Assembly: GCA_013815355.1 (NCBI GenBank)
Contig: JACDGG010000003.1
Location: 1-61,387 of the forward strand
Direction of reading: 5' to 3'
DNA length: 61,387 bases
Source: Solirubrobacterales bacterium
GTDB taxonomy: Bacteria > Actinomycetota > Thermoleophilia > Solirubrobacterales > Solirubrobacteraceae
This document shows, piece after piece, positions 6,956-19,034 of this stretch. Within the stretch, counting starts at the first letter, position 1; each line of letters starts with the position of its first letter. Below the pieces are notes generated by a model. The model saw only the letters and a program-made list of their open reading frames with translations, did no database searches and was not told the origin of the DNA. Made by a program: the position numbers and the translations under genes.

Positions 6956-7687
6956 GTGGGGGCGTGGACTGGCGGCGCCCGGTTCTACGATCTGCAGGTT
7001 TGGCTGGAGCGTTGGGCGCTCGATGCGGCGCTTGATCTCGCTGCTCCGACCGCAGACGATCGCCTGCTCGACGTGGCGACTGGCACAGGAGCGCTGCTGC
7101 GGCTGCTTGCATCCGGATATCCAGAAACTCGGGAGGTCGTGGGCCTTGACGCATCGGAGGCGATGCTTGGGCGCGCCCGCGAGCTGCCAGATTCGTGGCG
7201 GCTGATGCACGGCGATGCGCGAGCGCTTCCCTTTGAGCAGGGCCAGTTCGACGTGGTGACGGTCTGTTATCTGCTGCAGACGCTGGGCACCGAGACTCGC
7301 GAAAGGGTGCTGCGTGAGCTGAGCCGAGTGCTCAAGGTCGGCGGACGTCTGGTGACGGTCACCCCAAGGATGCCGAGGTCGGGTGTGATCGGCTTGCTCG
7401 CGTCACCGGTGGTGCGTCTGGCCGCTCGCTCGTCGGGGACGTTCGGAGGCATCGCACCGCTTGACCCGCGGCGGGAGCTGGCCGAAGCGGGGTTCGAGAT
7501 CGAGCGCGCACGAGATGTGCGCTTTGGCTATCCGTCCCTCTGCCTGCTTGCTCAAAAGAAGCCGCACGAACACGGGCGGAGGCGACCTGCGGCACGAGAT
7601 TTCGATAGCTACGAATCCTTTCGGCCCGCGAAGGGGTCAGACGGCCATGAGAGCCATTTGGAACGGGAAGACGATCGCCCAGAGTGA
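6956..7687 (+). CDS. Class I SAM-dependent methyltransferase
   Basis: The 243-residue protein has motif I DVATGTGALLRLL near residue 39, the acidic end of beta2 in VVGLDASEAML, motif II GDARALPFEQGQFDVVTV and the later RVLKVGGRLVTVTP strand. This is the UbiE/MenG-like Rossmann methyltransferase fold, acting on a small molecule, with the substrate unknown. The start is GTG 6956. The last about 40 residues are low-complexity and overlap the downstream DUF427 gene by 41 bases, so the original gene may have ended earlier. Confidence 0.8.
   Translation: MGAWTGGARFYDLQVWLERWALDAALDLAAPTADDRLLDVATGTGALLRLLASGYPETREVVGLDASEAMLGRARELPDSWRLMHGDARALPFEQGQFDVVTVCYLLQTLGTETRERVLRELSRVLKVGGRLVTVTPRMPRSGVIGLLASPVVRLAARSSGTFGGIAPLDPRRELAEAGFEIERARDVRFGYPSLCLLAQKKPHEHGRRRPAARDFDSYESFRPAKGSDGHESHLEREDDRPE
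7613..7640 (+). promoter_or_regulatory. Candidate ECF sigma promoter, DUF427 gene
   Basis: GAATCC at 7613-7618 and GGTCAG at 7635-7640 are separated by 16 bases. The same pair occurs before four other transcription units of this locus (8612, 12620, 13373, 15341). It ends 6 bases before ATG 7647, which would make the DUF427 mRNA leaderless. Confidence 0.6.
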
Positions 7688-7931
7688 CCACACGATCGTG
7701 GTCGAGGGGAACCACAATTTTCCACTCGAGAGTGTCGAGCCGGACGTGCTGCGCAGCAGTCCTATGAAGTCGCTGTGCCCGTGGAAGGGTTTGGCGAGCT
7801 ACCACCACGTGGAGGTCGACGGCGCGCGCGCAGCGAACGCCGCGTGGACCTACCGGCATCCGTATCCCTGGATACGCAAGATCAAGGGGTCCATATCGTT
7901 CTGGAACGGTGTGGAGTTGCTCCCTGACTGA
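7647..7931 (+). CDS. DUF427 family protein
   Basis: The 94-residue protein contains the DUF427 signature: an N-terminal WNGKTIAQSDHTIVVEGNH, then ESVEPDVLRSS, KSLCPWKGLASYHHVEVDG and AAWTYRHPYP, ending in the beta strand ISFWNGVEL. The family forms a small beta-barrel of unknown biochemical role. ATG 7647 lies within the 3' end of the methyltransferase gene and 6 bases after a candidate ECF promoter. The usual C-terminal part may be slightly short, since the protein ends at LLPD. Confidence 0.85.
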   Translation: MRAIWNGKTIAQSDHTIVVEGNHNFPLESVEPDVLRSSPMKSLCPWKGLASYHHVEVDGARAANAAWTYRHPYPWIRKIKGSISFWNGVELLPD

Positions 7932-7976
7932 ACGTCGCACCGCGCCCTCAGCGGGCTCGGCCGCGGTCCACCGCTC

Positions 7977-7982
7977 TACCAT
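7977..7982 (+). promoter_or_regulatory. -10-like element, leaderless start of CDP-alcohol PT gene
   Basis: TACCAT lies 8 bases before the GTG at 7991 and no Shine-Dalgarno sequence is present. This is the same geometry as at other leaderless genes in the window. Confidence 0.4.
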
Positions 7983-7990
7983 CGCCTACC

Positions 7991-8593
7991 GTGCTTGACC
8001 AGGCAATGCGCGTCCGCGCAGCTCCAGTGCTCGACCGCGCGGCCCGAGGTCTCTCTGGGGCAGGGGTGCGAGCTGGCGCGTTGACAGGCGCGGGCCTTGT
8101 TGTCGGCGTCGCCGCGTGCGCCGCAGTGGCGACCAAGCGATGGGATGTGGCGCTCGCGCTCTGGCTCCTGAACCGCGGGTTCGACGGGCTCGACGGCGCT
8201 GTCGCCCGGCGAACCGGCGCGAGCGAGCTCGGCGGGCTGCTGGATTTCGTGGCGGACTTCGTCGTCTACTCGGGATTCATAGTGGGTGTGGCGATCGCTG
8301 AGCCGGACGCGCGGTTGGCCTGCGTGGTGCTGCTAGCGAGCTATCTGGTCAACAATGTCGCGCTGCTGTCGTTCTCATCACTGGTGGAGCGTCTGGGCCT
8401 GAGCTTTGGGGACGAGCGGTCCCTTCGGTTGACTGCGGGGCTCGCGGAGGGCACCGAGACGATCGTCGTGTACGTGCTGTTCTGCGTGTTTCCGAACGCC
8501 GCGGCGGAGATCGCATGGGTGTTCGCGGGGATGGTCGCGGTCACCGCGGCTCAGAGGGTCGCGGTGGCGGTTAGGGTCCTCGGCGCACGCTGA
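7991..8593 (+). CDS. CDP-alcohol phosphatidyltransferase family membrane protein
   Basis: The 200-residue integral membrane protein carries the CDP-alcohol transferase signature DG-x2-AR-x8-G-x3-D-x3-D, seen as DGAVARRTGASELGGLLDFV followed by Asp. The four acidic residues bind the metal and CDP. Five or six hydrophobic segments follow. The acceptor alcohol cannot be read. E. coli ynjF, beside the ynjBCD transporter, is of the same family, and here too the gene sits directly before a YnjB/D/C-like ABC set. GTG 7991 follows TACCAT by 8 bases. Confidence 0.85.
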   Translation: MLDQAMRVRAAPVLDRAARGLSGAGVRAGALTGAGLVVGVAACAAVATKRWDVALALWLLNRGFDGLDGAVARRTGASELGGLLDFVADFVVYSGFIVGVAIAEPDARLACVVLLASYLVNNVALLSFSSLVERLGLSFGDERSLRLTAGLAEGTETIVVYVLFCVFPNAAAEIAWVFAGMVAVTAAQRVAVAVRVLGAR

Positions 8594-8611
8594 GCATCCT
8601 CGACACTGCCT

Positions 8612-8639
8612 GAATCCTTTGGGTTGGCGCTGGGGTCTG
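8612..8639 (+). promoter_or_regulatory. Candidate ECF sigma promoter, ABC operon
   Basis: GAATCC at 8612-8617 and GGTCTG at 8634-8639 have a 16-base spacer. They lie about 50 bases before the GTG of the substrate-binding protein. Same motif and spacing as at 7613, 12620 and 13373. Confidence 0.6.
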
Positions 8640-8690
8640 CTCAACCACATCCGGCCGCACGGGCTGGCCTAAATCGAGCGGGAAGGGATC

Positions 8691-9907
8691 GTGCTGAAAT
8701 CCAGCCGGAGACATGAGATTGCGTCCAGCGGAGCGAGGCGGTATCGCCTCGCGGCCCCGCTCGTAGCGGTGGCTGCGGTGGCTGCTCTGTTGCTGTCCGG
8801 CTGCGGAGCGTCGACGTCGGCGAGCGCAGCAAAGCGAACCTGGGTACAGACTCTCGCCGCGGCGCGCGGGCAGACTGTCAACTGGTGGATGTACGGCGGC
8901 GATGCCGGAACCAATGCCTTCGTTGACCGCTACGTGACGCCGGCGGCGGCAGAGCTCGGCGTCACGGTGCACCGAGTGCCTGTCGCTGAAACCACGGCCG
9001 CGGTCCACCGCGTAGTGCCGAACGCCGGGCCGGCAAGAGCTCCGGCGGCGCGGTCGATCTGATCTGGATCAATGGGGCGAACTTCGTCGAAGGCAAGCAA
9101 GCCGGCCTGTTGAGGAAGAACTGGGCTCGCGCCCTGCCGAACTCCCGCTACGTCGACTGGGGCGCGCCGATCATCAACCGCGACTTCCAAGTTCCAGTTG
9201 AAGGCCAAGAGTCGCCGTGGGAGGGCGCCGCGTTCGTCTTTGGCTACAACACGACGCAGGTGAGCTCGCCGCCGACGTCGTTCCCGGCGTTGCTGGCGTG
9301 GGCCAAGGCCCATCCCGGGCACTTTAGCTACCCTGCGCCACCGGACTTCACGGGCGCCGCGTTCGTGCGGCAGGTCATCCAGCGACTTGGCGGCGTAAGC
9401 CAGGGGCTGCGGTACCTCAAGGAACTGAAGCCCTACCAGTACGAACACGGCAGGGTATTCCCCACATCGATCGATGAGCTCGACCAGCTGTTCGCCAACA
9501 ACCAGGTCGCGTTCGACATGAGCTACAACGCCAACTTCCTGGATCTTGCGGTCAAAACGGACAAGTTCCCGAGCACGGTACGGCCGTTCCTGATCGGCGG
9601 CGGGGCGCTGGAGAACACCTCCTACGTGACGATCCCCGCCAACGCCGCGGACACGGCCGGCGCTGAAGTCGTCGCGAACCTGCTTCTAAGCCCGAAGCTA
9701 CAGGCCGACCTGGCCAACCCCGCGATCCTGGGGATGCCCTCGGTCCTCGATGGCTCCAAGCTACCCGCCGCTTCGGCCGTGTCACGGGAGCACTCCACCG
9801 CGACGGACCCGTATCTCCTGGCGAGCCTCGGCGAGCCGCTCACCGAGCTGCCAGCCAGCCAGGACGAACCGATCGAAAAGGCATGGACGCGGATGGTGCT
9901 GCGATAG
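8691..9907 (+). pseudogene. YnjB-like ABC substrate-binding lipoprotein, frameshifted
   Basis: Two overlapping frames together encode one solute-binding protein. Frame 1 starts at GTG 8691 with GGGAAGGG upstream, has a signal peptide with lipobox LLLSGC and reads VNWWMYGGDAGTNAFVD, as in YnjB. Near 9014 the match switches frame: frame 1 continues as nonsense to a stop at 9060-9062, while the other frame continues with GKSSGGAVDLIWINGANF and runs intact to 9907. A one-base deletion explains this. About 290 downstream residues have no own start signal. The lipoprotein would bind the transported solute; the substrate is unknown. It could be a real mutation, an assembly error or, less likely, programmed slippage. 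Confidence 0.8.
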
Positions 9908-10962
9908 GCGCACTGCTCTGCAGCGGGCTGACGGTGGCGCGCGGGCGGGCGCCCGTGCTTCGTGGCGTTGAGCTGGAGATACCGAGCGGGACGCGCACCG
10001 CGCTCGTCGGCCCGTCCGGCGCGGGCAAGACGACCCTGCTTCGCGCCATCGCCGGCCTGCAGCCAGTGCAAAGCGGGACAATTGAACTCGGTGGGCAGCG
10101 CGTCGACGGGCTTCCCGCACACCGCCGGGGCTGCGCGGTGGTCTTTCAGGAGCCGCGGCTGCTGCCACACCTCGACGCAGCGGAGAACGTGGCTTTCTCG
10201 CTTCGTACCGCCGGTGTCCGGCGCGTCGAGCGTCGGTCACGCGCGGCTGCGCTGCTCGGCGATGTGGGTCTCGATGGGTTCGGCCGGCGGCGTGTGGGTG
10301 AGCTCTCCGGCGGCGAGCAGCAGCGCATCGCCCTGGCGCGCGCGCTGTGCGCGGAACCGCAGCTGCTGCTCCTGGACGAGCCGTTCTCGGCCGTCGACGC
10401 GAACCGCCGGGAAGAGCTTCGCGCACTGCTCGTGGCGCTGCAGCAGGAACGCCGCCTGACGACCCTGTTCGTGACCCACGACCGCGGCGAGGCCGCGCAG
10501 CTCGGGGAGCGGGTCGCGCTGATGCTCGAGGGCCGCATCATCCAGCACGACGAGCCGAGCGTCCTCTTCGAGCGCCCGTCCTCACCGATCGTCGCTCGCT
10601 TCTTCGGCTCATCGAACATCCTGCGCGGCGTGATCCGTGCCGGCGCGATCACTCTGGGGCAGTGCACGATCCCTGCACCCGGACCCGACGGTGAGGCCTG
10701 TCTGACGATCCGACCGGAGCGCGTAATCCTGGCGCGCGACGGGCCACTCGAGCTTCAGGTGCTCGAGACGACGTACACCGGGACGCACACCCGCCTGCGG
10801 CTGGGCTCGGGGGATCTGGCGCTCGTGGCGACGGTGGCGCCCTCGCTGGCGCCCGCCGCGGGAGCGCACGTTCGCGTGGAGCTTCCGATCGAGGATCTCT
10901 GGCGAATCCCGCTCGCGCATGAGGCCGGCGAGGTCCCGGCGCAGGAGTGGGATCTGACTTGA
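9883..10962 (+). CDS. ABC importer ATP-binding protein (YnjD-like)
   Basis: The 359-residue ATPase has Walker A GPSGAGKTTLL near residue 44, Q-loop in VVFQEPRLL, signature LSGGEQQRIALARAL, Walker B LLLLDEPFSAVD and the switch His in FVTHDR. The last about 120 residues form a TOBE-like regulatory domain, as in MalK/CysA-type importers. It overlaps the end of the substrate-binding gene by 25 bases and is followed by two permease genes, so it powers this importer. Confidence 0.88.
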   Translation: MDADGAAIGALLCSGLTVARGRAPVLRGVELEIPSGTRTALVGPSGAGKTTLLRAIAGLQPVQSGTIELGGQRVDGLPAHRRGCAVVFQEPRLLPHLDAAENVAFSLRTAGVRRVERRSRAAALLGDVGLDGFGRRRVGELSGGEQQRIALARALCAEPQLLLLDEPFSAVDANRREELRALLVALQQERRLTTLFVTHDRGEAAQLGERVALMLEGRIIQHDEPSVLFERPSSPIVARFFGSSNILRGVIRAGAITLGQCTIPAPGPDGEACLTIRPERVILARDGPLELQVLETTYTGTHTRLRLGSGDLALVATVAPSLAPAAGAHVRVELPIEDLWRIPLAHEAGEVPAQEWDLT

Positions 10963-11837
10963 CGGGCGCCGCGCACGAGGCGGGGCGATCGTCGGTCGCC
11001 GGCCGCTTGAGCGCCCGGACACGCCTTCCGGTCGAGGCCCTCGGGGTGGCTCCTGCCGTGCTGGTCACCGTGGTTCTCTTTGGAGGTGCTCTTCTCGGCG
11101 CCGTCAAGCAGAGCGTTGAGCCGTCCCTGGGCGGCGGGCCCTCAACGTGGAACCTGGACAGCTGGCGGACGCTGCTCGCCAGCCCTGGCTTTCTGGACGC
11201 GCTGCGGTTCTCCGCCCAGCTGGCGCTGATCGCGAGTGTCCTCGCGGCGTCTCTCGCGGTGGCCGTAGCGGTCGCTCTGCGCTCGCACGGAAGGCTCGTG
11301 CGGAGCGCGTTCTCACTGCCGGTGCCAGTGCCCCACCTGCTGGTGGCCGTCGTCGCGTTCATGTGGCTCTCCCCCGGCGGACTCGCGCAACGTGCCCTCG
11401 GCCGGCTGCCGCTCAGGCTCGTGCACGACCCGCTCGGGCTCGGCGTGATCCTCGTCTACGTCTACAAGGAGACACCGTTCCTCGTCTTGCTGCTCCTGGC
11501 GGTCATGGGCAGCACGCTGCGCGAGCGCGAGGAGGCCGCGGCCGTCTTCGGAGCTTCCCCGTTTCGAGTGCTGATCTGGGTTGTGTGGCCGGTGATCCGC
11601 CGGCCGCTGCTGATAGGGACGATGATCGTCGCCGCGTTCGTCTTCGGCGCCTTCGAAGTGCCGCTCGTGCTCGGCCCGAACTATCCCCTGACGCTCGCGA
11701 GCTACGCACTGCAGGCCCAGCAGAAAAGCCCGCTGAGAGGGCAGGGGGTAGCGGCGGCGAGCCTCCTGGTAGCTGCAGGCATGTCGATTCTCATCGCGGC
11801 AGCAGTGATGAGGCTTGCGCGAACAGCCGATGCGTGA
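10947..11837 (+). CDS. ABC importer permease, first subunit (YnjC N-half-like)
   Basis: The 296-residue protein has about six membrane segments and the cytoplasmic coupling helix EAA motif EREEAAAVFGASPFRVLIWV. It overlaps the ATPase gene by 16 bases and the next permease by 8. E. coli YnjC is a single fused protein of two such halves; here they are separate genes. Confidence 0.85.
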   Translation: MGSDLTGAAHEAGRSSVAGRLSARTRLPVEALGVAPAVLVTVVLFGGALLGAVKQSVEPSLGGGPSTWNLDSWRTLLASPGFLDALRFSAQLALIASVLAASLAVAVAVALRSHGRLVRSAFSLPVPVPHLLVAVVAFMWLSPGGLAQRALGRLPLRLVHDPLGLGVILVYVYKETPFLVLLLLAVMGSTLREREEAAAVFGASPFRVLIWVVWPVIRRPLLIGTMIVAAFVFGAFEVPLVLGPNYPLTLASYALQAQQKSPLRGQGVAAASLLVAAGMSILIAAAVMRLARTADA

Positions 11838-12594
11838 GCCCCGGCGCATAGCTACAGCCGCGGCGGTCGTGCTGTTCGCCGCACCACTCACCGTGCTCGT
11901 GATCCAGGCATTTGCCGAGGTCTGGCGGTATCCCGCGCTTCTGCCGCAGCAGTTCGGGCTGCGAGGATTCCGGGTCGCTTTCGCCGAAGGCGATGCCGCC
12001 GCCGCCGTGAGCAACTCGTTGGAGGTAGCGCTGCTGAGCACCGGGCTCGCAGTGCTGATCGCCTGGCCCGCAGCCCGGTCGCTGGCCGCGACCCGAGGAC
12101 GGTGGCACGGCGCGGTGCTCCTGCTGCTCGCGCTGCCGCTGCTCGTCCCGCCGTTCGCGACCGGCACGGGGCTCACCGAGTGGTTCATACGCTTGGGTCT
12201 GGCTGGCACGCGCGCCGGCCTTGTGCTCGCTCACCTGACCGTCGTGCTGCCATACGTTCTGCTCGTATTGACCTCCGCATTCAGCCCCCGCGTCGTCGAG
12301 CTCGAGGAGATGGCCCGCAGCCTCGGCACGCCACCACTGCGTCGGCTGGTGTTCGTGACTGTGCCGAGCGTCCGCGCCGTCCTGACCGCCGCCTTCCTGC
12401 TCGGCTTCCTCGTCTCATGGAGTCAGTACGGCACGTCGCTGGTCGTGGGAGCGGGCCTGCCGATGCTTCCTCTCACGCTGCTTCCGTTCATCGGCTCAGA
12501 CCCGACGGTCGCAGCGGCGCTGTCGCTCATGTTTTTGGTGCCCGCGATCCTCGCGCTCGTCCTCGCCTCGCGCGCAACGCGCGAGACGCTTTGA
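11830..12594 (+). CDS. ABC importer permease, second subunit (YnjC C-half-like)
   Basis: The 254-residue protein has about six membrane helices and the EAA-loop LEEMARSLGTPPLRRLVFV. I chose ATG 11830, which overlaps the previous gene by 8 bases; TTG 11815 is possible. With the preceding permease and ATPase it makes a complete importer core, but the only adjacent binding-protein gene is frameshifted. Confidence 0.85.
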   Translation: MREPRRIATAAAVVLFAAPLTVLVIQAFAEVWRYPALLPQQFGLRGFRVAFAEGDAAAAVSNSLEVALLSTGLAVLIAWPAARSLAATRGRWHGAVLLLLALPLLVPPFATGTGLTEWFIRLGLAGTRAGLVLAHLTVVLPYVLLVLTSAFSPRVVELEEMARSLGTPPLRRLVFVTVPSVRAVLTAAFLLGFLVSWSQYGTSLVVGAGLPMLPLTLLPFIGSDPTVAAALSLMFLVPAILALVLASRATRETL

Positions 12595-12619
12595 GACGGG
12601 CCCCGTCTGAGCCACCGGC

Positions 12620-12647
12620 GAATCCATCTGCGTCCAAGCTGGGTCAC
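12620..12647 (+). promoter_or_regulatory. Candidate ECF sigma promoter, Usp-like gene
   Basis: GAATCC at 12620-12625 and GGTCAC at 12642-12647 have a 16-base spacer and end 10 bases before ATG 12658. This is the third copy of the motif in the locus. Confidence 0.6.
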
Positions 12648-12657
12648 ACTGGTAACG

Positions 12658-13128
12658 ATGAGCCTCGCAAGTGCACCAGCGTTCGCGGTTGGGATCGACG
12701 CCGACACCGCCAGGTCTCGCTCCGGACTGCGAGTGCTCGTCATGTACGAGCGCGGGAGCAACGGAGCCGCGGCGCTTGCCGAGGGTGTGAAACAGACAGC
12801 CGCCGGAGGCGAGCTGACGGTCGTGACGCTAGCTCCGCAGGCGGCTCCATCGCGCTGCTGCGGCCCAGGCCCCGGGTTCTACAACTGCGCAGTTCGAGAC
12901 GAAGCCACACAGGAGCTACAGGAGGCACACGCGATCCTCGGACCAGCGTCGGCGCGTACGACGTTCAAGGCCTTGATCGAGCGACGCGACCCGCCGCTTG
13001 CGAGATGGGCTCACGAGCAGGGCTTCCAGCTCGTGCTGGTGCCTTCGCACCGTCTAACGCCCGGAGGCAACCGCGCCGCGCGCAAACTTCGACGGTCAGT
13101 CACTGCTGAAGTCCGGGTCGTCGGCTGA
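12658..13128 (+). CDS. Universal-stress-like protein with a Cys cluster
   Basis: The 156-residue protein has the alternating strand/helix pattern of the Usp fold: LRVLVMYERGSNGAAALAEG, GELTVVTLAP and a C-terminal FQLVLVPSHRLTPGGNRAAR. Between them is an unusual cysteine cluster RCCGPGPGFYNCAVRDEA (Cys near residues 67, 68 and 77), a candidate redox or metal site. A candidate ECF promoter lies just upstream. Usp assignment is by pattern, so moderate. I cannot assign a specific function. Confidence 0.6.
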   Translation: MSLASAPAFAVGIDADTARSRSGLRVLVMYERGSNGAAALAEGVKQTAAGGELTVVTLAPQAAPSRCCGPGPGFYNCAVRDEATQELQEAHAILGPASARTTFKALIERRDPPLARWAHEQGFQLVLVPSHRLTPGGNRAARKLRRSVTAEVRVVG

Positions 13129-13139
13129 GCCTCCCGTAG

Positions 13140-13303
13140 TGAGCGCGAAGCCGAGGGCCCCGGGAACGTCGCGATCTGCTCAACGACGGGGCCGAGGACC
13201 CGACAGGGCGCACACGGGCGAAGTAGTCGACGAGCACGGGAAGCTCTGACTGCGCGAGCACCGTATCGAAGTGGAAATCGGTTAGCGTGATCACCGTGCT
13301 CAT
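13140..13303 (-). pseudogene. Thioredoxin remnant, frameshifted
   Basis: From ATG 13303 the minus strand encodes MSTVITLTDFHFDTVLAQ and LPVLVDYFAR, the start of a thioredoxin (the strand before the active site). The match then jumps frame: the active-site region PCAPCRVLGPVVEQIA lies in another frame at about 13170-13220. The active site is CAPC instead of CGPC. The rest of the about 105-residue fold is absent, and the remnant runs up against the 3' end of the Usp-like gene. It is non-functional. Confidence 0.7.
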
Positions 13304-13372
13304 AGGGCTTTTCCGTCCTCGTTTGGGGCGTTTCGGTTGTGGGACCCGGACGCAAGCGCCAGGGATTTTCGT

Positions 13373-13400
13373 GAACCTTCTCGGCCGCTAGGTCGGTCAG
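13373..13400 (+). promoter_or_regulatory. Candidate ECF promoter before the sigma gene (autoregulation)
   Basis: GAACCT at 13373-13378 and GGTCAG at 13395-13400 have a 16-base spacer, with a second overlapping GGTCGG at 13391. The element lies before the ECF sigma gene itself, the usual position for autoregulation. Confidence 0.6.
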
Positions 13401-13443
13401 ACCACAGGAGATGGCAGCAACGGCCCTCCTTCGACCACCGCTC

Positions 13444-14013
13444 ATGCCAGCCCCCAACCTCGATGATCCGCACCTGGTTGCGCTCGCTCAGGGCGGCGAC
13501 CGCGCCGCGTTTGACGAGCTCGCCGAGCGCCACTCCACGCAGTTGCGTCGCGTGCTGTTCCGGATCACCCGCGACTGCGACGCCGCCTACGACGCGGTCC
13601 AGGAGGCGCTGATCCGCGCCTGGAAGAACATCGACCGTTTCGAGGGACGCGCACAATTCTCGACGTGGCTGACGCGGATCGGCATAAACGAGGCCTACCG
13701 CGGCCTGCGCGGGGCCACCGAGCGGCCCCTTGAGCTCACCGACCAGATCGGCGAGCGGATCCCTTCGTGGGGCAGCCGACCCGATGAGATCTTCGAGTCG
13801 CGCGAGTTCCTTCAGGCCGTCGACCGAGCACTCGGCGCGCTTCCGCTTGACTACCGAGCGGCCGTCGCGTTGCGCGATGTCGAGGGCCTCTCGACCGCGG
13901 AGGCCGCCGAGATCCTCGAAATCGGGGAGCGTGCGCTGAAGAGCCGGGTGCACCGGGGCCGGATGGCGTTGCGCGTCGAGCTTGACGGCTTCTTCAAGGA
14001 GGGCTACGTATGA
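13444..14013 (+). CDS. ECF-type RNA polymerase sigma factor
   Basis: The 189-residue protein has sigma region 2 (LRRVLFRITRDCDAAYDAVQ, then EALIRAWKNIDRF and FSTWLTRIGINEAYRGLRG) and region 4 (ALPLDYRAAVALRDVEGLST, AEAAEILEIGERALKSRVHR). There is no region 1 or 3, as in group IV sigma factors. I chose ATG 13444 over ATG 13411, but both are possible. A truncated copy of its zinc-binding anti-sigma gene overlaps its stop by ATGA, and a full anti-sigma gene lies at 15511. It probably controls the GAAYCY-GGTC promoters of this locus. Confidence 0.9.
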   Translation: MPAPNLDDPHLVALAQGGDRAAFDELAERHSTQLRRVLFRITRDCDAAYDAVQEALIRAWKNIDRFEGRAQFSTWLTRIGINEAYRGLRGATERPLELTDQIGERIPSWGSRPDEIFESREFLQAVDRALGALPLDYRAAVALRDVEGLSTAEAAEILEIGERALKSRVHRGRMALRVELDGFFKEGYV

Positions 14014-14135
14014 CCCGCACCCTCAACCCGATGGCGCGGGTTGCGAGGTCACGGCGCGGCATCGCGCGCGTGCTCGGCGATCAGCTGCGCGAGCGCCGGC
14101 GCTTGGTCCTCCTGGAGGAAGTGCTTGGCTCCTAG
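14010..14135 (+). pseudogene. Anti-sigma gene remnant, ATGA-coupled to ECF sigma
   Basis: ATG 14010 overlaps the sigma stop (ATGA). The frame gives MTRTLNPMARVARS and then an unrelated sequence that stops at 14133-14135. The start resembles MASTLNPVKRH of the intact anti-sigma protein at 15511. No HX3CX2C motif is present. The join to foreign sequence lies at about 14045, where the deleted hydrolase tail begins on the other strand. The remnant marks the original sigma/anti-sigma operon broken by rearrangement. Confidence 0.5.
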
Positions 14136-14445
14136 CGAGTGCAGGACCTCAACTCCGGCGAGCTGACGCGCCTTCTCGCCGTAGATGGCCGCTCCAGCTG
14201 TAGTCAAAGGCCTCGGGGCGCGCGGCGAGCCCCAGCCCAGGCAGATCGAAGGCGACTCCGTGCAGGCGCTGCCCGGCGAGCTCCACGAGCACCTTGCGAT
14301 AAAGGAAGCTCGATGCGGGTACGCCGTGCAGACACAACACGGTCTCCCCTGCGCCCTGTTCCAGGACGAAGCTGAGCGTCCCGTCGGCGGCGAAGAGCCG
14401 TCCCGAATCTCGGTGCGCGCTGACGGTAGCGCTCTCGGCCCGCAC
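14049..14445 (-). pseudogene. Alpha/beta-hydrolase with internal deletion
   Basis: The start (GTG 14445, just after the DedA stop) reads like the N-terminus of a haloalkane-dehalogenase-like hydrolase: GETVLCLHGVPASSFLYRKV with the oxyanion HGxP, then VAFDLPGLGLAARPEAFDYS. Near 14190-14210 it shifts frame and jumps to the C-terminus: IYGEKARQLAGVEVLHSLGA and KHFLQEDQAP, carrying the catalytic His. The nucleophile elbow (GxSxG or GxDxG), about 150-200 residues, is missing. It cannot be active. Confidence 0.7.
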
Positions 14446-14447
14446 GC

Positions 14448-15113
14448 CTATGACCGTCCCTCGCGGGCGCGGGCCCGACGTGTCGGCGGCGGCGGATTGC
14501 TCGGCCCGGGCCGTGGCTGCGGGAATGCGGCGCCGAGCGGTCCCGGGAGGGCCAGCTCGGCCTCCCGCTGGAGCCGTGCCTCGTGGCGGCGCAGGTAGGA
14601 CACCCAGCCAGCGATCACGCCGAGGACGATCGCCGCGAGAGCGATCTGCACTCCCGTGCTCGCGCGCTGCAACGTCGCACCGAGATAGAAGTAGGCGTAG
14701 CCGTAGACCAGCGCCCAGACGATCCCGCCCGCAGCGTTGAACGCCAGGAAGCGACCCCAGCGCATGCGGTTCATGCCGGCAAGGAACGCCGCCCACGTCC
14801 GAAGCCCGATGATGAAACGCCCGAAGAAGACGACCTTGCCGCCGTGGCGCATGAACAGGTAGCGCCCGAGCTTCGCGCGAGCTTCGCTGAAACCCACGAG
14901 GTGGCCGTAGCGTTGCAGCATCCGCGCGCCACCCCAGCGTCCCAGCGCGAAGCCCGCGTTGTCGCCGACGATCGCACCGAGCATCGCCGCCGCGATCACC
15001 AATCCAATACTCAGGCGGTGGCTGCTGCCGGCGTAGATCGCCGCCGTGATCAGCGCCGTCTCCCCCGGGAACGGAACTCCGAGGCTCTCGATCGCAACGA
15101 ACGCGAATACCAC
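14448..15113 (-). CDS. DedA/VTT-family membrane protein
   Basis: The 221-residue protein carries the DedA family core: ESLGVPFPGETALITAAIYA, GDNAGFALGRWGG, FMRHGGKVVFFGRFIIGLRT and RFLAFNAAGGIVWA, with four to six hydrophobic segments and a Pro/Arg-rich tail. Family members act in membrane lipid translocation and homeostasis. GTG 15113 is the first usable start, but homologous sequence (IALLISGGQIDHLLAGWGYP) continues in frame for about 25 residues upstream without a start codon. The true N-terminus may have been cut. E. coli ydjX/ydjZ, upstream of ynjABCDEF, are of the same superfamily. Confidence 0.85.
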   Translation of the reverse strand: MVFAFVAIESLGVPFPGETALITAAIYAGSSHRLSIGLVIAAAMLGAIVGDNAGFALGRWGGARMLQRYGHLVGFSEARAKLGRYLFMRHGGKVVFFGRFIIGLRTWAAFLAGMNRMRWGRFLAFNAAGGIVWALVYGYAYFYLGATLQRASTGVQIALAAIVLGVIAGWVSYLRRHEARLQREAELALPGPLGAAFPQPRPGPSNPPPPTRRARAREGRS

Positions 15114-15510
15114 CGGGTAGCCCCACCCGGCGAGCAGATGGTCGATCTGACCGCCACTGATGAGCAGAGCGATGGGGAATCCTAGGATCGCTGGCCTCGC
15201 GGTGCGCCCAGCGGCGGTCGGCGCGCTAGAAGGTCGACGTCAACCCTCCTCGGGCGCGTGGATGCTTCGTGCATGTTTGAGGTCCGCCCTGCGTTGGGAT
15301 CTAGACCAATTAGACCCTGTGAAAGTTGTCGAGGATTCGCGAATCCTTTGGACCCAGAAGCGGTCAGATGAGACAGAGCCATGAATGAGATAGTCCCACG
15401 ATCGCGGGCCGTGCCGTTGGCGCAGCCGTCGCGCGTCGAGCGCGTATCGGGCCGTCGCGCGGCGCGCGGGCCTATGGTGCATTCAAGCAACACGACATGG
15501 AGGGCTTGTG
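15114..15510. other. Non-coding gap with an ECF-type promoter
   Basis: No gene was recognised. The right half holds the candidate ECF promoter at 15341-15367 and, closer to the anti-sigma gene, TATGGT at 15473-15478. The left part continues the DedA frame on the minus strand without a start codon. Confidence 0.5.
15341..15367 (+). promoter_or_regulatory. Candidate ECF promoter, anti-sigma/redox operon
   Basis: GAATCC at 15341-15346 and GGTCAG at 15362-15367 have a 15-base spacer, one base shorter than the other four copies. The next plus-strand genes are the anti-sigma protein, the thioredoxin-fold protein, the flavoprotein and the radical-SAM protein. Confidence 0.5.
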
Positions 15511-15744
15511 ATGGCATCCACACTCAATCCGGTCAAGCGTCACCGCGAGCACTGCCGGCATGTGCGCGCGCTGATGTCGGACTACCTCGATGGCGAGCTC
15601 CCGCCGCCGGACACGCGGACGGTGAAACGCCACGTCCGGTGGTGCCCGAACTGTCGGCGCATGCTCAAAAACCTCACGGACACCGTCAGGGCGCTACACG
15701 CTCTCGGGCTCGACCCGACGACAACCGACGGCCCCGGAGCTTGA
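15511..15744 (+). CDS. Soluble zinc-binding anti-sigma factor (zf-HC2)
   Basis: The 77-residue protein contains the ZAS/zf-HC2 pattern: HCRHVRALMSDYLDGELPPP, then a conserved helix and HVRWCPNC (H-x3-C-x2-C) near residues 41-48. There is no membrane segment, so it is a cytoplasmic anti-sigma factor, as with redox-sensing RsrA-type proteins in which a disulfide in the zinc site releases the sigma factor. I chose ATG 15511 with GGAGGG 6 bases upstream. It probably binds the ECF sigma encoded 1.5 kb upstream; the two are separated by a hydrolase/DedA segment. Confidence 0.85.
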   Translation: MASTLNPVKRHREHCRHVRALMSDYLDGELPPPDTRTVKRHVRWCPNCRRMLKNLTDTVRALHALGLDPTTTDGPGA

Positions 15745-15796: not shown

Positions 15797-16177
15797 ATGA
15801 GGATCGAGCTCTTCTTCTTCGACGGGTGCCCGAACTATGAGGCGCTGCTGGCGCACCTGCGCGACCTCGCGAATCAACGCGGCTTCCGCGAGGAGATCGT
15901 TCTCCGACGCGTCCTCTCGAGCGACGACGCCGAGGCCGTGCGATTCCTCGGCTCACCGTCGGTCCGCGTCGACGGCGAAGACGTCGAGCCGGGCGCCAAT
16001 GCCCGTGAGGACTATGGCCTGAAGTGCCGCCTGTATTCGACTCTCGACGGTCTCAGAGGATCGCCGCCGGACGAGATGATTCTCAGCGCGTTCGCACGTC
16101 ATTCCGCTGACACGGCCAGCCGGATGATTGAGCTTCCTGACCCCGTGCTGGGCGATGATCGAGATGAGCGGATCTAA
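15797..16177 (+). CDS. Thioredoxin-fold protein, MerA-neighbour type
   Basis: The 126-residue protein starts MRIELFFFDGCPNYEALLAH, a thioredoxin-like beta1-alpha1 with a single Cys in the CPxY position, and continues FLGSPSVRVDGEDVEP, the cis-Pro-containing segment. Then follows GLKCRLYSTLDG. Proteins of this type are often found beside mercury or other thiol-linked operons. Here it overlaps the start of the flavoprotein gene by 14 bases, suggesting they act together. Substrate is unknown. Confidence 0.75.
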   Translation: MRIELFFFDGCPNYEALLAHLRDLANQRGFREEIVLRRVLSSDDAEAVRFLGSPSVRVDGEDVEPGANAREDYGLKCRLYSTLDGLRGSPPDEMILSAFARHSADTASRMIELPDPVLGDDRDERI

Positions 16178-17630
16178 ACGCTATGACCTCGTTGTCGTGG
16201 GCGGTGGCACAGGCGGGCTCCTCAGCGCGCTGATCGCGGCCGGCACCGGAGCCCGCGTCGCGCTCCTCGAGCGAGACCGCACGGGCGGTGACTGCCTGTG
16301 GACCGGCTGCGTGCCAAGCAAGAGCCTGATCGCCGCGGCCGGACTCGCGCATCGGATGCGCAACGCCGACAGCGTAGGACTGACACCCGTGGAGCCGGTC
16401 GTGGACCTCGCGCGAGTGATGGATCGCGTGTGGGCGGCGATCCACACAATCGAGCCGCAGGACTCGCCGGAGCGGCTGCGAGCGGCGGGGATCGACGTCC
16501 TCGCCGCGACCGGCGAGTTCACCGGGCCGGGCAGGATCCTCGCCGGCGAGGATGAGCTGCGGTTCCGCAGCGCGATCGTGGCGACCGGCTCGCGTCCGGA
16601 CGTCCCGCCGATCCCCGGTCTGAGGAACGCGGAACCCCTTACGAGCGACACCGTCTGGTCGCTGCGGGAGCTACCCGATCGTCTGCTGGTGCTCGGGGGC
16701 GGCCCGATCGGCTGCGAGCTCGCCCAGGCGTTCGGGCGGCTCGGGTCGAACGTGACACTCGTGGAGACGGCCGACGAGCTCCTACTCAAGGAGGAGCCGC
16801 GCGCACGGCAGCTAATCGCAGAACGCCTCGGCGCCGAGGGGGTCGATCTCCGCCTCGGCCGGCGAGCGTCGCAGGTACGCCCGGCGGCGCGCGAGCACGA
16901 CGGCGGCGAGACCCGCAACGAGCTTCTGCTTGACGGTCCCGCCGGAACTGAGACGGTGCCGTTCGACCGTGTCCTCGTCGCCACGGGACGCCGCCCGCGC
17001 ACGGAGGGACTCGGCCTCGAGCGCGTCGGGGTCGAGGTCGGGGCGGGCGGAGCGGTGACCGTCGATCGCCGCTTGCGTACGACAGGCCGGCGGATCTTCG
17101 CCGTCGGAGACGTGACCGGGTTGCTGCCGTTCACGCACGTCGCGGCGCACCACGCCCGTGTCGCGACCCCGAACGCCCTGTTCCACACCCGCACGTCGGT
17201 TAGCGAGACGTTGCCGTGGGTGACGTTCACCGATCCGGAGATAGGCCATGTCGGCCTGACCGAGGACGAAGCCAGGTCAAAGTGGGGTGAGCGGGCGATC
17301 ATCGCCGAACACGACTACGCCGACCTCGATCGTGCAATCACCGAGGGCAAGGCGTACGGCTTCGCGAAGCTCGTCGCAGATCCGCACGGCCGCCTGATAG
17401 GGGCGACCGTCGCCGCTCCCGGCGGGGGTGAGGCGATCGCAGAGCTCACAGCGTGGGTCTCGCGTGGCGAGAAGATCGCCGCGCTCTCACGCAGCGTCCA
17501 CGCCTACCCCACGCTCGCCGAGGGCCCCGCCCGCGCCGACGACGAGCACCTCGCCGCGCGTTATTCGACACCGCGCATGCGCGCGGCGCTTCGACCCGTC
17601 CTGGCGACACTGCGACTACTGGAGCGTTGA
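16164..17630 (+). CDS. Pyridine-nucleotide disulfide oxidoreductase, MerA/Lpd-like
   Basis: The 488-residue flavoprotein has the FAD dinucleotide fold YDLVVVGGGTGGLLSALIAA, the redox-active disulfide GGDCLWTGCVPSK, the NAD(P)-binding LLVLGGGPIGCELAQAFGRL, the second FAD motif RIFAVGDVTG and the C-terminal dimer-interface His-x4-Glu in HAYPTLAEG. It lacks the vicinal C-terminal Cys pair and N-terminal HMA domain of mercuric reductase, so Hg(II) reduction is unlikely. Neighbours suggest redox chemistry with the thioredoxin-fold protein. ATG 16164 overlaps the upstream gene; ATG 16155 is possible. Confidence 0.88.
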   Translation: MSGSKRYDLVVVGGGTGGLLSALIAAGTGARVALLERDRTGGDCLWTGCVPSKSLIAAAGLAHRMRNADSVGLTPVEPVVDLARVMDRVWAAIHTIEPQDSPERLRAAGIDVLAATGEFTGPGRILAGEDELRFRSAIVATGSRPDVPPIPGLRNAEPLTSDTVWSLRELPDRLLVLGGGPIGCELAQAFGRLGSNVTLVETADELLLKEEPRARQLIAERLGAEGVDLRLGRRASQVRPAAREHDGGETRNELLLDGPAGTETVPFDRVLVATGRRPRTEGLGLERVGVEVGAGGAVTVDRRLRTTGRRIFAVGDVTGLLPFTHVAAHHARVATPNALFHTRTSVSETLPWVTFTDPEIGHVGLTEDEARSKWGERAIIAEHDYADLDRAITEGKAYGFAKLVADPHGRLIGATVAAPGGGEAIAELTAWVSRGEKIAALSRSVHAYPTLAEGPARADDEHLAARYSTPRMRAALRPVLATLRLLER

Positions 17631-18742
17631 TGGGTGGCATCTCGCAAACGCGTCTGGCGCGTGCGGTCCGCGCGATGGAGCTCGCAACCAGACCCGTGCC
17701 CGTAGACCTGCAGGCCGCCCTGGAACTGCGCTGGCAGGAGCTGCCCGATCATGTAAAGACACCGGCCCAGGCGCTCGGCCGCCGTAGCACCGGCTGCGAG
17801 GGCACCCACGGGGTGTTCCCGCGCTGCGACCTCGCGTGCACACCCTGCTACCACTCCCGCGAGGCTAACCGCGTACGCGTCGACGGCCCGCACACGACGG
17901 CGGCCGTCGACGCACAAATGGGGCTGTTGCGTCAACAACGGGGGCCGGGGCAGCACGCGCAGCTGATCGGCGGTGAGGTGAGCCTGCTTTCTCCCGAGGA
18001 TCATGCGGCGGCGCTCGAAGCGATGCGCCGCCATCAGCGCAAGCCGATGAGCATGTCCCACGGCGACTTCGACTACGACTACCTGCGCGCGCTCGCGCTC
18101 GCGACCGACGGGACTCCGCGCTTCTCGCACCTCTCCTTCGCGGGACACTTCGACTCGATGATGTTCGGCCGGCGCGGCTTACGCCGCGTGCACGACGAGA
18201 CCGAACTGAACCCGCACCGCCTGGCGTTCTGCGAAATGTTCAGGCGTCTTCAGCGCGAGCACGGGGTCGGCCACTACCTCGCGCACAACATGACGGTAAC
18301 CCCGCGTAACCTCCACCAGGTCTCGGACGTCATCCGTGACTGCCGGGGCTACGGCTTTCGCATGTTCTCCTTCCAGCCCGCCGCGTTCATCGGCAACAGC
18401 GCCCGCTGGAAGGACGACTACCGCGAGTTCAGCGACGATGAGGTGTGGAAGCAGAGGCATGGTCGATGGCCCGCGCGGCGAGCCACGCGAGGCATTGAGC
18501 GCAGCAGACGCCATCACCTACGCGCGGATGCTCGCCGCGCCAGCCGTTCTTTCAACATCTGCACACCGGGGGGTGTTCCTATCGCTGCTCGCAGGCGGGG
18601 CACTGAGCGACGGACTGGATGGACGACTTGCCCGCCGAGACGGGACCACCCGGTTGGGGCGGGACCTCGATGCAGCGGCCGACGTTGCGTTTCTCTGGGC
18701 GGCGGGGCGTGCGGCCTCGAGAGCCGGATGGCTGGCGCATAG
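17630..18742 (+). pseudogene. Radical-SAM protein, C-terminally truncated and frame-joined
   Basis: ATG 17630 overlaps the flavoprotein stop (TGATG). The N-terminus carries a radical-SAM cluster motif CDLACTPC (C-x3-C-x2-C), preceded by another Cys in GCEGTHGVFPR. Then LIGGEVSLLSPEDHAAAL and GFRMFSFQPAAFIGNS follow, ending with the FSDDEVWKQ segment. From about 18450 the frame is nonsense (Arg-rich) because a CDP-alcohol transferase gene begins in another frame. The recognisable part is about 275 residues and lacks its C-terminal portion. A deletion joined the two genes. Confidence 0.75.
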
Positions 18743-19034
18743 CGCGGCGGTGTCGCTGGGCGTGCGGGAGCCCGCGTTGGTTGGAGCGAGCGCATTGTTC
18801 TACTTCCTCGGTGCCGCTCCGCCGCCCGCCGCGACGGTCGGGGCGACGCGGTTTGCAGGACCGCTACTCACACTAGGTCTAGCGCTGTCGGCGAGCGGAA
18901 GGCGCAAGCTAGGAAGCTCGATCGTGATCGCATCGACAGGCGCCGCCGCCGTGCGCCATCTGCAGGCGCTCGGCGCGCCGCGCTCGCGTTCACCGTGCCC
19001 GAGCGGCGCTCGGCCTGGACTGCGTGCGCTCTGA
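18459..19034 (+). CDS. Second CDP-alcohol phosphatidyltransferase-like protein
   Basis: The 191-residue membrane protein has SDGLDGRLARRDGTTRLGRD followed by LDAAADVAFLW, matching DG-x2-AR-x8-G-x3-D-x3-D of the CDP-alcohol transferase family. I chose ATG 18459, with only a weak RBS. Its start coincides with the break in the radical-SAM gene, so its native upstream sequence may be lost. It is the second such enzyme in the locus, after 7991. The C-terminus is Pro/Arg-rich after the last hydrophobic segment. Confidence 0.75.
   Translation: MVDGPRGEPREALSAADAITYARMLAAPAVLSTSAHRGVFLSLLAGGALSDGLDGRLARRDGTTRLGRDLDAAADVAFLWAAGRAASRAGWLAHSAAVSLGVREPALVGASALFYFLGAAPPPAATVGATRFAGPLLTLGLALSASGRRKLGSSIVIASTGAAAVRHLQALGAPRSRSPCPSGARPGLRAL

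What the first reader, a model, noticed from the sequence alone, without database searches (positions are those of the whole stretch)
7613..15367. Candidate ECF sigma regulon: five GAAYCY-N15/16-GGTCWS promoters
Seen: motif pairs GAATCC/GAACCT and GGTC(A/T)(G/C) with 16-base spacers at 7613, 8612, 12620 and 13373 and 15 bases at 15341, all on the plus strand, each before a transcription unit of the same locus (DUF427, ABC importer, Usp-like protein, the ECF sigma gene itself, the anti-sigma/thioredoxin-fold/flavoprotein/radical-SAM operon). Known: ECF sigma factors usually autoregulate and recognise -35 GAAC/GAAT type boxes; soluble HX3CX2C anti-sigmas such as RsrA sense redox. Inference: a redox-linked ECF regulon.
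Basis: partly seen in the sequence, partly recalled or inferred. Interest (0 to 1): 0.85.

Follow-up and report, generated by a model that had tools for sequence, protein, structure and literature searches.

The report
Local sigma-factor regulon, probably redox-triggered
A bacterial gene island carries its own alternative sigma factor and a matching set of promoters for the island's genes, probably switched on when a zinc-and-cysteine sensor protein is oxidised; related bacteria keep the same promoters in front of the same kinds of genes.

Summary
All five motif pairs exist as described; they are five of the ten exact matches in the 3.2-Mb genome. Leave-one-out matrices rank each site 1st or 2nd of 122,774 window positions. 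A matrix from the five gives 24 hits above 14 bits in relatives' sigma loci, 2.2 expected. GAATCCT is the most enriched heptamer upstream of relatives' homologous genes, window excluded. Refined motif: GRATCCTTT-N13/14-GTC. At 14 of 30 matched sites a start codon lies 11-15 nt after GTC, suggesting near-leaderless mRNAs. A sixth, divergent site lies at 15338 (minus). The regulon looks local, not genome-wide. The anti-sigma has RsrA's CHCC zinc-ligand spacing in 9 of 9 examined clade members; 12 of 14 sister anti-sigmas are HHCC. This favours redox sensing, which stays inferred. Against: six relatives' sigma genes lack the site; the RsrA model's cut-off is missed; only 2 of 15 sister loci keep most of the gene set. 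A new member of the ECF/zinc-anti-sigma kind, untested by experiment.

The parts
7613..7640 (+). ECF-type promoter before DUF427
   Evidence: GAATCCTTT-N14-GTC, G of GTC 11 nt before the start codon
7647..7931 (+). DUF427 protein
   Evidence: PF04248 92.2 bits
7991..8593 (+). CDP-alcohol phosphatidyltransferase
   Evidence: PF01066 30.7 bits, cut-off 22; 59% identical protein in sister locus L124
8612..8639 (+). ECF-type promoter before the ABC importer genes
   Evidence: GAATCCTTT-N14-GTC, 56 nt before the GTG at 8691
8691..9907 (+). YnjB-type binding protein of an ABC importer, broken in frame
   Evidence: Pieces 8691-9062 (62.5 bits) and 9110-9907 (246 bits) match NF008633, cut-off 203; name YnjB recalled
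9883..10962 (+). ABC importer ATPase
   Evidence: PF00005 and TOBE_2
10947..11837 (+). ABC importer permease
   Evidence: NCBIfam permease hits below cut-offs
11815..12594 (+). ABC importer permease
   Evidence: NCBIfam permease hits below cut-offs
12620..12647 (+). ECF-type promoter before the ORF at 12658
   Evidence: GAATCCATC-N14-GTC; G of GTC 15 nt before the start
12658..13128 (+). Unassigned protein (reader: Usp-like)
   Evidence: No Pfam or NCBIfam match
13373..13400 (+). ECF-type promoter before sigma
   Evidence: GAACCTTCT-N14-GTC; G of GTC 15 nt before the start; GAATCC version at the same place in L040 and L060
13411..14013 (+). ECF sigma factor
   Evidence: Sigma70_r2, Sigma70_r4_2, TIGR02937 over cut-offs
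14448..15113 (-). VTT-domain (DedA-type) membrane protein, possible target of the divergent site
   Evidence: PF09335 54.0 bits
15313..15338 (-). Divergent ECF-type site, back to back with the next
   Evidence: GAATCCTCG-N14-GTC, 16.6 bits; start codon of the VTT gene about 200 nt on
15341..15367 (+). ECF-type promoter before the anti-sigma operon
   Evidence: GAATCCTTT-N13-GTC; same motif before the anti-sigma in L054, L055, L056, L058
15508..15744 (+). Small CHCC zinc anti-sigma
   Evidence: zf-HC2 52.8 bits, cut-off 22.2; C-X25-H-X3-C-X2-C
15797..16177 (+). DF-family thioredoxin-fold protein
   Evidence: NF049942 102.3 bits, cut-off 70
16128..17630 (+). MerA/lipoamide-dehydrogenase-type flavoprotein (start uncertain)
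   Evidence: Pyr_redox_2 and dimerisation domains; below NCBIfam equivalog cut-offs
17630..18742 (+). Radical-SAM protein; resemblance to relatives ends near 18455
   Evidence: PF04055 22.6 bits, under the 29.5 cut-off; related to the 472-residue protein of L055

Best explanation
The island encodes an ECF sigma factor (13411-14013) held inactive by a small zinc anti-sigma (15508-15744). When the anti-sigma's CHCC zinc site is oxidised or attacked by a thiol-reactive agent, sigma is released, joins RNA polymerase and starts transcription at G(A/G)ATCCTTT-N13/14-GTC promoters inside the island, often close to the start codon. This raises sigma, anti-sigma (negative feedback), a thioredoxin-fold protein, a disulfide-reductase-type flavoprotein, a radical-SAM enzyme, DUF427 and a YnjB-type ABC importer. 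Shown by sequence comparison: the promoters, the genes behind them, their association with this sigma clade, and the CHCC residues. Inferred: recognition by this sigma, sequestration by this anti-sigma, the thiol-reactive trigger, and the pathway's chemistry.
For: Five of 10 genome matches in 7.8 kb; leave-one-out ranks 1 or 2; 24 hits versus 2.2 expected in relatives, 21 of them before genes of the set; GAATCCT in 11 of 37 upstream regions of relatives versus 0.79 expected, window excluded; 21 of 44 GAATCCTY-N14/15-GTC matches of seven sigma-bearing genomes at the sigma loci, in the one-contig genome G226 6 of 6; DUF427 upstream regions above 15 bits in 5 of 8 genes of sigma-bearing loci (window included) and 0 of 28 elsewhere; start codon 11-15 nt after GTC at 14 of 30 sites versus 5.6% of random positions; ten sigma rows one group, 100/99; CHCC in 9 of 9 anti-sigmas examined; glutaredoxin, thioredoxin and AhpC/TSA-like targets in L040 and L060; domains.
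Against: No expression or binding data. Six sigma genes (L054-L059) lack an upstream site; L059 has only GAACCGTT-type variants. Orthologous sites are not independent, and the 30 sites were picked for matching; its longest-frame rule takes a wrong frame in some (for example 15341). Three of the 24 hits (L040 at 256, 15068, 20303) were not assigned. The anti-sigma misses NCBIfam's RsrA cut-off, 28 of 62.5 bits. HHCC anti-sigmas accompany related genes in sister loci, so redox sensing may not be ancestral. The importer was found in none of the eight core-clade loci searched.
Confidence: 0.78

Rival explanations
1. Same ECF regulon, but the signal is a thiophilic metal or metalloid (mercury, arsenite) or an electrophile rather than oxidants; it attacks the cysteine zinc site and the regulon detoxifies or modifies the agent.
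For: MerA-type flavoproteins in 7 of 8 core-clade relatives' loci; in L120 one carries a heavy-metal-type N-terminal domain by eye, and ArsR-like regulators by eye lie in L040, L054, L117, L120; in four g25 loci a site, strong in L054 and L057 and weak in L055 and L056, precedes an operon with TIGR04282- and TIGR04283-type genes, which NCBIfam names arsenosugar biosynthesis glycosyltransferases; weak ArsM hits of the methyltransferase.
Against: TIGR04283 was not found in the window's genome at E 1e-20, an assembly 91% complete; the flavoprotein misses the MerA cut-off, 336.8 of 454.45 bits; targets in L040 and L060 are general thiol-redox proteins.
Confidence: 0.3
2. The motif is a real promoter family but is read by another sigma factor, or is an activator site; the neighbouring ECF gene is incidental.
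For: Six sigma genes of g25 lack the motif; the own genome has 10 matches to this sigma, so other ECF sigmas exist.
Against: Clusters of sites go with this sigma clade; genomes without it show scattered background matches. Two boxes at near-fixed spacing are ECF-like. Sister sigmas appear to go with a shifted motif, GAAYCG...GGTC, but that is suggestive only (GAACCGT 5 of 37 versus 0.68, p = 6e-4 before correction).
Confidence: 0.1
3. Chance: GC-rich DNA yields such pairs often enough to place five in 8 kb.
For: Five further exact matches lie elsewhere in the genome.
Against: Leave-one-out ranks, relatives, start-codon positions.
Confidence: 0.01

Closest known systems
SigR/RsrA (Streptomyces) and SigH/RshA (Mycobacterium, Corynebacterium)
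   Same: ECF sigma with a small CHCC zinc anti-sigma; RsrA's ligands Cys11, His37, Cys41, Cys44 (PMC4960319, passages) have the spacing found here. Similar promoter geometry. In C. glutamicum the anti-sigma gene has a promoter that fits SigH control (PMC3489674, passages).
   Different: SigH of M. tuberculosis reads GGAAYR-N17-GTT (PMC4803200, passages); here GAATCCTTT and GTC. The regulon looks confined to an island, and the anti-sigma fails the RsrA model cut-off.
RsiW/SigW (Bacillus)
   Same: RsiW is the best solved-structure match of the anti-sigma, E = 0.0055; HX3CX2C motif.
   Different: RsiW is membrane-bound and HHCC (PMC4960319, passages); this is a 78-residue CHCC protein.
E. coli ydjXYZ-ynjABCDEF operon (recalled, not looked up)
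   Same: Binding protein of NF008633, permeases, ATPase, CDP-alcohol phosphatidyltransferase, VTT-domain protein.
   Different: Here together with an ECF/anti-sigma pair, flavoprotein, radical SAM and DUF427. That NF008633 is YnjB is recalled.

Membership tests
ECF (group IV) sigma factor | Sigma-70 regions 2 and 4 in a protein of about 200 residues | tested here: met
   Sigma70_r2 59.9 bits (cut-off 24), Sigma70_r4_2 57.6 (25.7); TIGR02937 89.2 (42.9).
ECF (group IV) sigma factor | Own promoter of the two-box type (common, not universal) | tested here: met
   G of GTC 15 nt before the sigma start in window, L040, L060; absent in L054-L059. Transcription not measured.
Zinc anti-sigma (ZAS) | HX3CX2C plus Cys or His 23-26 residues before it | tested here: met
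   C16-X25-H42-X3-C46-X2-C49; 9 of 9 clade anti-sigmas examined are CHCC; the tenth locus, L082, was not examined for one.
RsrA (TIGR03988) | NCBIfam equivalog cut-off | tested here: not met
   28.0 of 62.5 bits. It may work like RsrA but is not filed as RsrA.
RsrA-type redox switch | Oxidation forms a disulfide from the N-terminal ligand Cys, expels zinc and releases sigma | not testable with these tools
   Only the residues can be seen.
SigR/SigH regulon | Promoter GGAAYR-N17-GTT | tested here: not met
   Window boxes are GAATCCTTT (three), GAATCCATC, GAACCTTCT and GGTC.
YnjB-type ABC importer | Binding protein of NF008633 (PRK11622) | tested here: met
   C-terminal piece 246 of 203 bits; N-terminal piece 62.5 on its own; gene broken in frame.
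Published ECF groups (recalled) | Match to a group model | not tested
   The models were not at hand.

The most novel reading that the evidence does not exclude
A narrow, patchily inherited ECF clade of Solirubrobacterales commands a transport and biosynthesis island whose anti-sigma has switched from HHCC to CHCC zinc chemistry, so that related genes were rewired from a non-oxidative signal to thiol oxidation while sigma and promoter changed together (GAAYCG to GAATCC). In genus g25 the regulon takes in an rSAM-TIGR04282-TIGR04283-MFS operon, so the product may be a metalloid- or thiol-sugar compound or lipid.
Probability: 0.25. Interest if true: 0.75.

Novelty: new member of a known kind. 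Interest (0 to 1): 0.52.

Why it matters
It gives a testable regulon for proteins of unknown function (DUF427, a radical-SAM protein, a DF-family thioredoxin fold, a YnjB-type importer). It also offers a natural comparison of HHCC and CHCC anti-sigmas over related genes, which bears directly on the claim that the N-terminal zinc-ligand cysteine makes such proteins redox sensors (PMC4960319, passages). A sharp two-box promoter near the start codon would make regulon prediction practical in these bacteria.

Tried and rejected
A matrix scan of the whole own genome was not possible, so genome counts rest on exact patterns. The C179 match was considered as a target and dropped: it lies in a coding frame. 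The arsenosugar label was considered for the window and dropped: TIGR04283 was not found in its genome. The sister motif was sought without a given pattern: GAACCGT reached 5 of 37 versus 0.68, p = 6e-4, and was not the top word (GGTCCAA, 5 versus 0.33); suggestive only. In one search, 30 DUF427 loci were fetched from a longer list of matches; 2 (L097, L112) were scanned at a wrong offset and are not counted; some of these genomes hold a sister sigma.

Papers: no listed paper concerned this system, but listings were partial and only titles and abstract starts were seen: 15 of 35; 8 of 48; the ECF re-classification paper itself was not among them; 12 of 653; 2 of 2; 8 of 96; 10 of 27; 8 of 424; 8 of 9; 4 of 4. 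Three papers were read in passages. Absence from print is not claimed beyond these searches.

Gene calls in relatives come from an ORF and GC-frame rule, not a gene finder; the 14-bit threshold was my choice.
Full report
What was checked. The exact pattern occurs 10 times in the genome, five times here; the reversed control pattern occurs twice. Because the pattern was read off the sites, I used tests that do not simply reuse them. Leaving each site out, a matrix of the other four ranks it 1, 1, 2, 2 and 1 among 122,774 window positions, training sites set aside. A matrix of the five, run on 161,839 bases around sigma orthologs in relatives, finds 24 hits above 14 bits; first-order random sequence gives 2.2 on average and at most 4 in 20 runs. 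With the window excluded and no motif given, GAATCCT is the most enriched heptamer in 37 regions upstream of relatives' homologous genes, 11 of 37 against 0.79 expected, p = 2e-10. The regions include congeneric orthologs, so this p is optimistic.

The refined promoter. Across genomes the element is best written G(A/G)ATCCTTT-N13/14-GTC. It precedes sigma in the window, L040 and L060; anti-sigma in the window, L054, L055, L056 and L058; DUF427 in the window, L040, L054, L056 and L058; a DF-family thioredoxin fold in L054; a second flavoprotein in L054, L056 and L057; a radical-SAM protein in L055; a metallophosphatase/radical-SAM fusion in L054 and L057, weakly in L055 and L056; a membrane protein without a Pfam match in L056 and L058, weakly in L054; a glutaredoxin and a thioredoxin in L040; and an AhpC/TSA-like protein in L060. 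Of the 24 hits, 21 are accounted for in this way or by the sigma of L082 (GAATCGTTT variant); three in L040 (256, 15068, 20303) are not. At 14 of 30 matched sites a start codon lies 11-15 nt after the G of GTC, against 226 of 4,036 random positions followed by an open frame. If transcription starts 7-10 nt after GTC, as is usual for ECF promoters (general knowledge), such mRNAs are leaderless or nearly so. Caveats: sites were picked for matching, several are orthologous, and the longest-frame rule takes a wrong frame in some cases (for 15341 the anti-sigma start is about 145 nt away).

A sixth site. On the minus strand at 15338 a 16.6-bit site faces away from the one at 15341; the two -35 boxes form GAGGATTC-GC-GAATCC. 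L060 has the same arrangement at 2271/2274, between sigma and an AhpC/TSA-like gene. In the window the site points towards a VTT-domain gene whose start is about 200 nt away, a weaker link.

Link to this sigma. Orthologs of about 60% identity or more occur in 8 of 399 sampled genomes of the class and 8 of 146 of the family, the own genome included, and at E of 1e-44 only in the own genome among 396 of the phylum. Ten sigma sequences form one group with 100/99 support; 14 of 15 sister rows group beside it with weak support, 83/79. For GAATCCTY-N14/15-GTC, 21 of 44 matches in seven sigma-bearing genomes lie within 8 kb of the sigma; the other 23 (3.3 per genome) resemble the 16 matches (2.7 per genome) in six genomes without it. 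In the one-contig genome G226 it is 6 of 6. For GRATCCTTT-N13/14-GTC, 8 of 13 matches in eight sigma-bearing genomes are local, none of the two in G279 and none at all in G344, G391 and G097; 16 genomes without the sigma have 8 in all. Upstream of DUF427, 5 of 8 genes in sigma-bearing loci (window included) exceed 15 bits; of 28 genes elsewhere none exceeds 10.3. The regulon thus looks local.

The sensor. The anti-sigma is 78 residues with C16-X25-H42-X3-C46-X2-C49. Passages of PMC4960319 state that RsrA's zinc ligands are Cys11, His37, Cys41 and Cys44, the same spacing, that the trigger disulfide needs Cys11, and that the HHCC form of RsrA is not released on oxidation; they also mention a contrary report for the HHCC protein RslA. 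All 9 clade anti-sigmas examined are CHCC; of 14 anti-sigma genes in sister loci 12 are HHCC and 2 CHCC. This favours redox sensing in the window's clade without showing it. The anti-sigma gene lies next to sigma in the eight relatives' loci but in line (L040, L060), convergent (L054-L057) or divergent (L058, L059). In the window it is 1.5 kb downstream. An ATG overlapping the sigma stop at 14010 opens a short frame beginning MTRTLNPMAR, like the clade's anti-sigmas by eye: perhaps a relic of an in-line copy.

The island. Of 15 sister loci (38-47% sigma identity), two keep most of the set: L124 (methyltransferase, CDP-alcohol phosphatidyltransferase, sigma, anti-sigma, flavoprotein, radical SAM, importer) and L120 (sigma, anti-sigma, flavoproteins, DUF427, importer). 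L121 and L125 keep several genes; the rest have few or none. The importer was not found in the eight core-clade loci searched; in L120 and L124 motif-like sites stand before its binding protein. In four g25 loci the metallophosphatase/radical-SAM gene leads an operon with TIGR04282- and TIGR04283-type genes and an MFS transporter; in L054 both models pass their cut-offs (160.7 of 134, 205.1 of 182 bits). TIGR04283 was not found in the window's genome, so the arsenosugar name cannot be carried over.

Results against. Sigma genes of L054-L059 lack the site; L059 has GAACCGTT variants only; the anti-sigma misses the RsrA model; the binding-protein gene is broken in frame and the radical-SAM frame loses resemblance near 18455, so the island may be partly decayed or the assembly faulty.

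Verdict. A real, conserved, local ECF regulon with its own promoter type. Known kind, new member; signal and chemistry open.

Noticed in passing
window 8691-9907: The YnjB-type binding-protein gene is split into two frames (8691-9062, 9110-9907): sequencing error or decay. The homologue in L124 is one 397-residue frame.
   Followed up: partly
window 17630-19034: The radical-SAM frame loses resemblance to relatives near 18455, where a second CDP-alcohol phosphatidyltransferase gene begins in another frame.
   Followed up: partly
window 14010-14135: An ATG overlapping the sigma stop opens a short frame starting MTRTLNPMAR, like the N-terminus of the clade's anti-sigmas by eye: possible relic of an in-line anti-sigma gene.
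   Followed up: partly
window 14149-14450, minus strand: Part of an alpha/beta-hydrolase-like frame between sigma and the VTT-domain gene, by eye; looks like a gene fragment.
   Followed up: no
L054 4237-8602, L055 5389-9755, L056 4293-8804, L057 10458-14818: Metallophosphatase/radical-SAM fusion (Rv1681-like), TIGR04282- and TIGR04283-type genes and MFS transporter in a row in four g25 loci.
   Followed up: partly
L040 8955-9928: DUF427 and radical-SAM frames look truncated and run together behind a motif site; probably gene remnants.
   Followed up: no
L054 and L055 (G226 contig 1, sigma at 3369875 and 1275797): One genome in a single contig holds two copies of the sigma island.
   Followed up: partly
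L121 and L125: Two anti-sigma-like genes lie around one sigma gene (tblastn).
   Followed up: no
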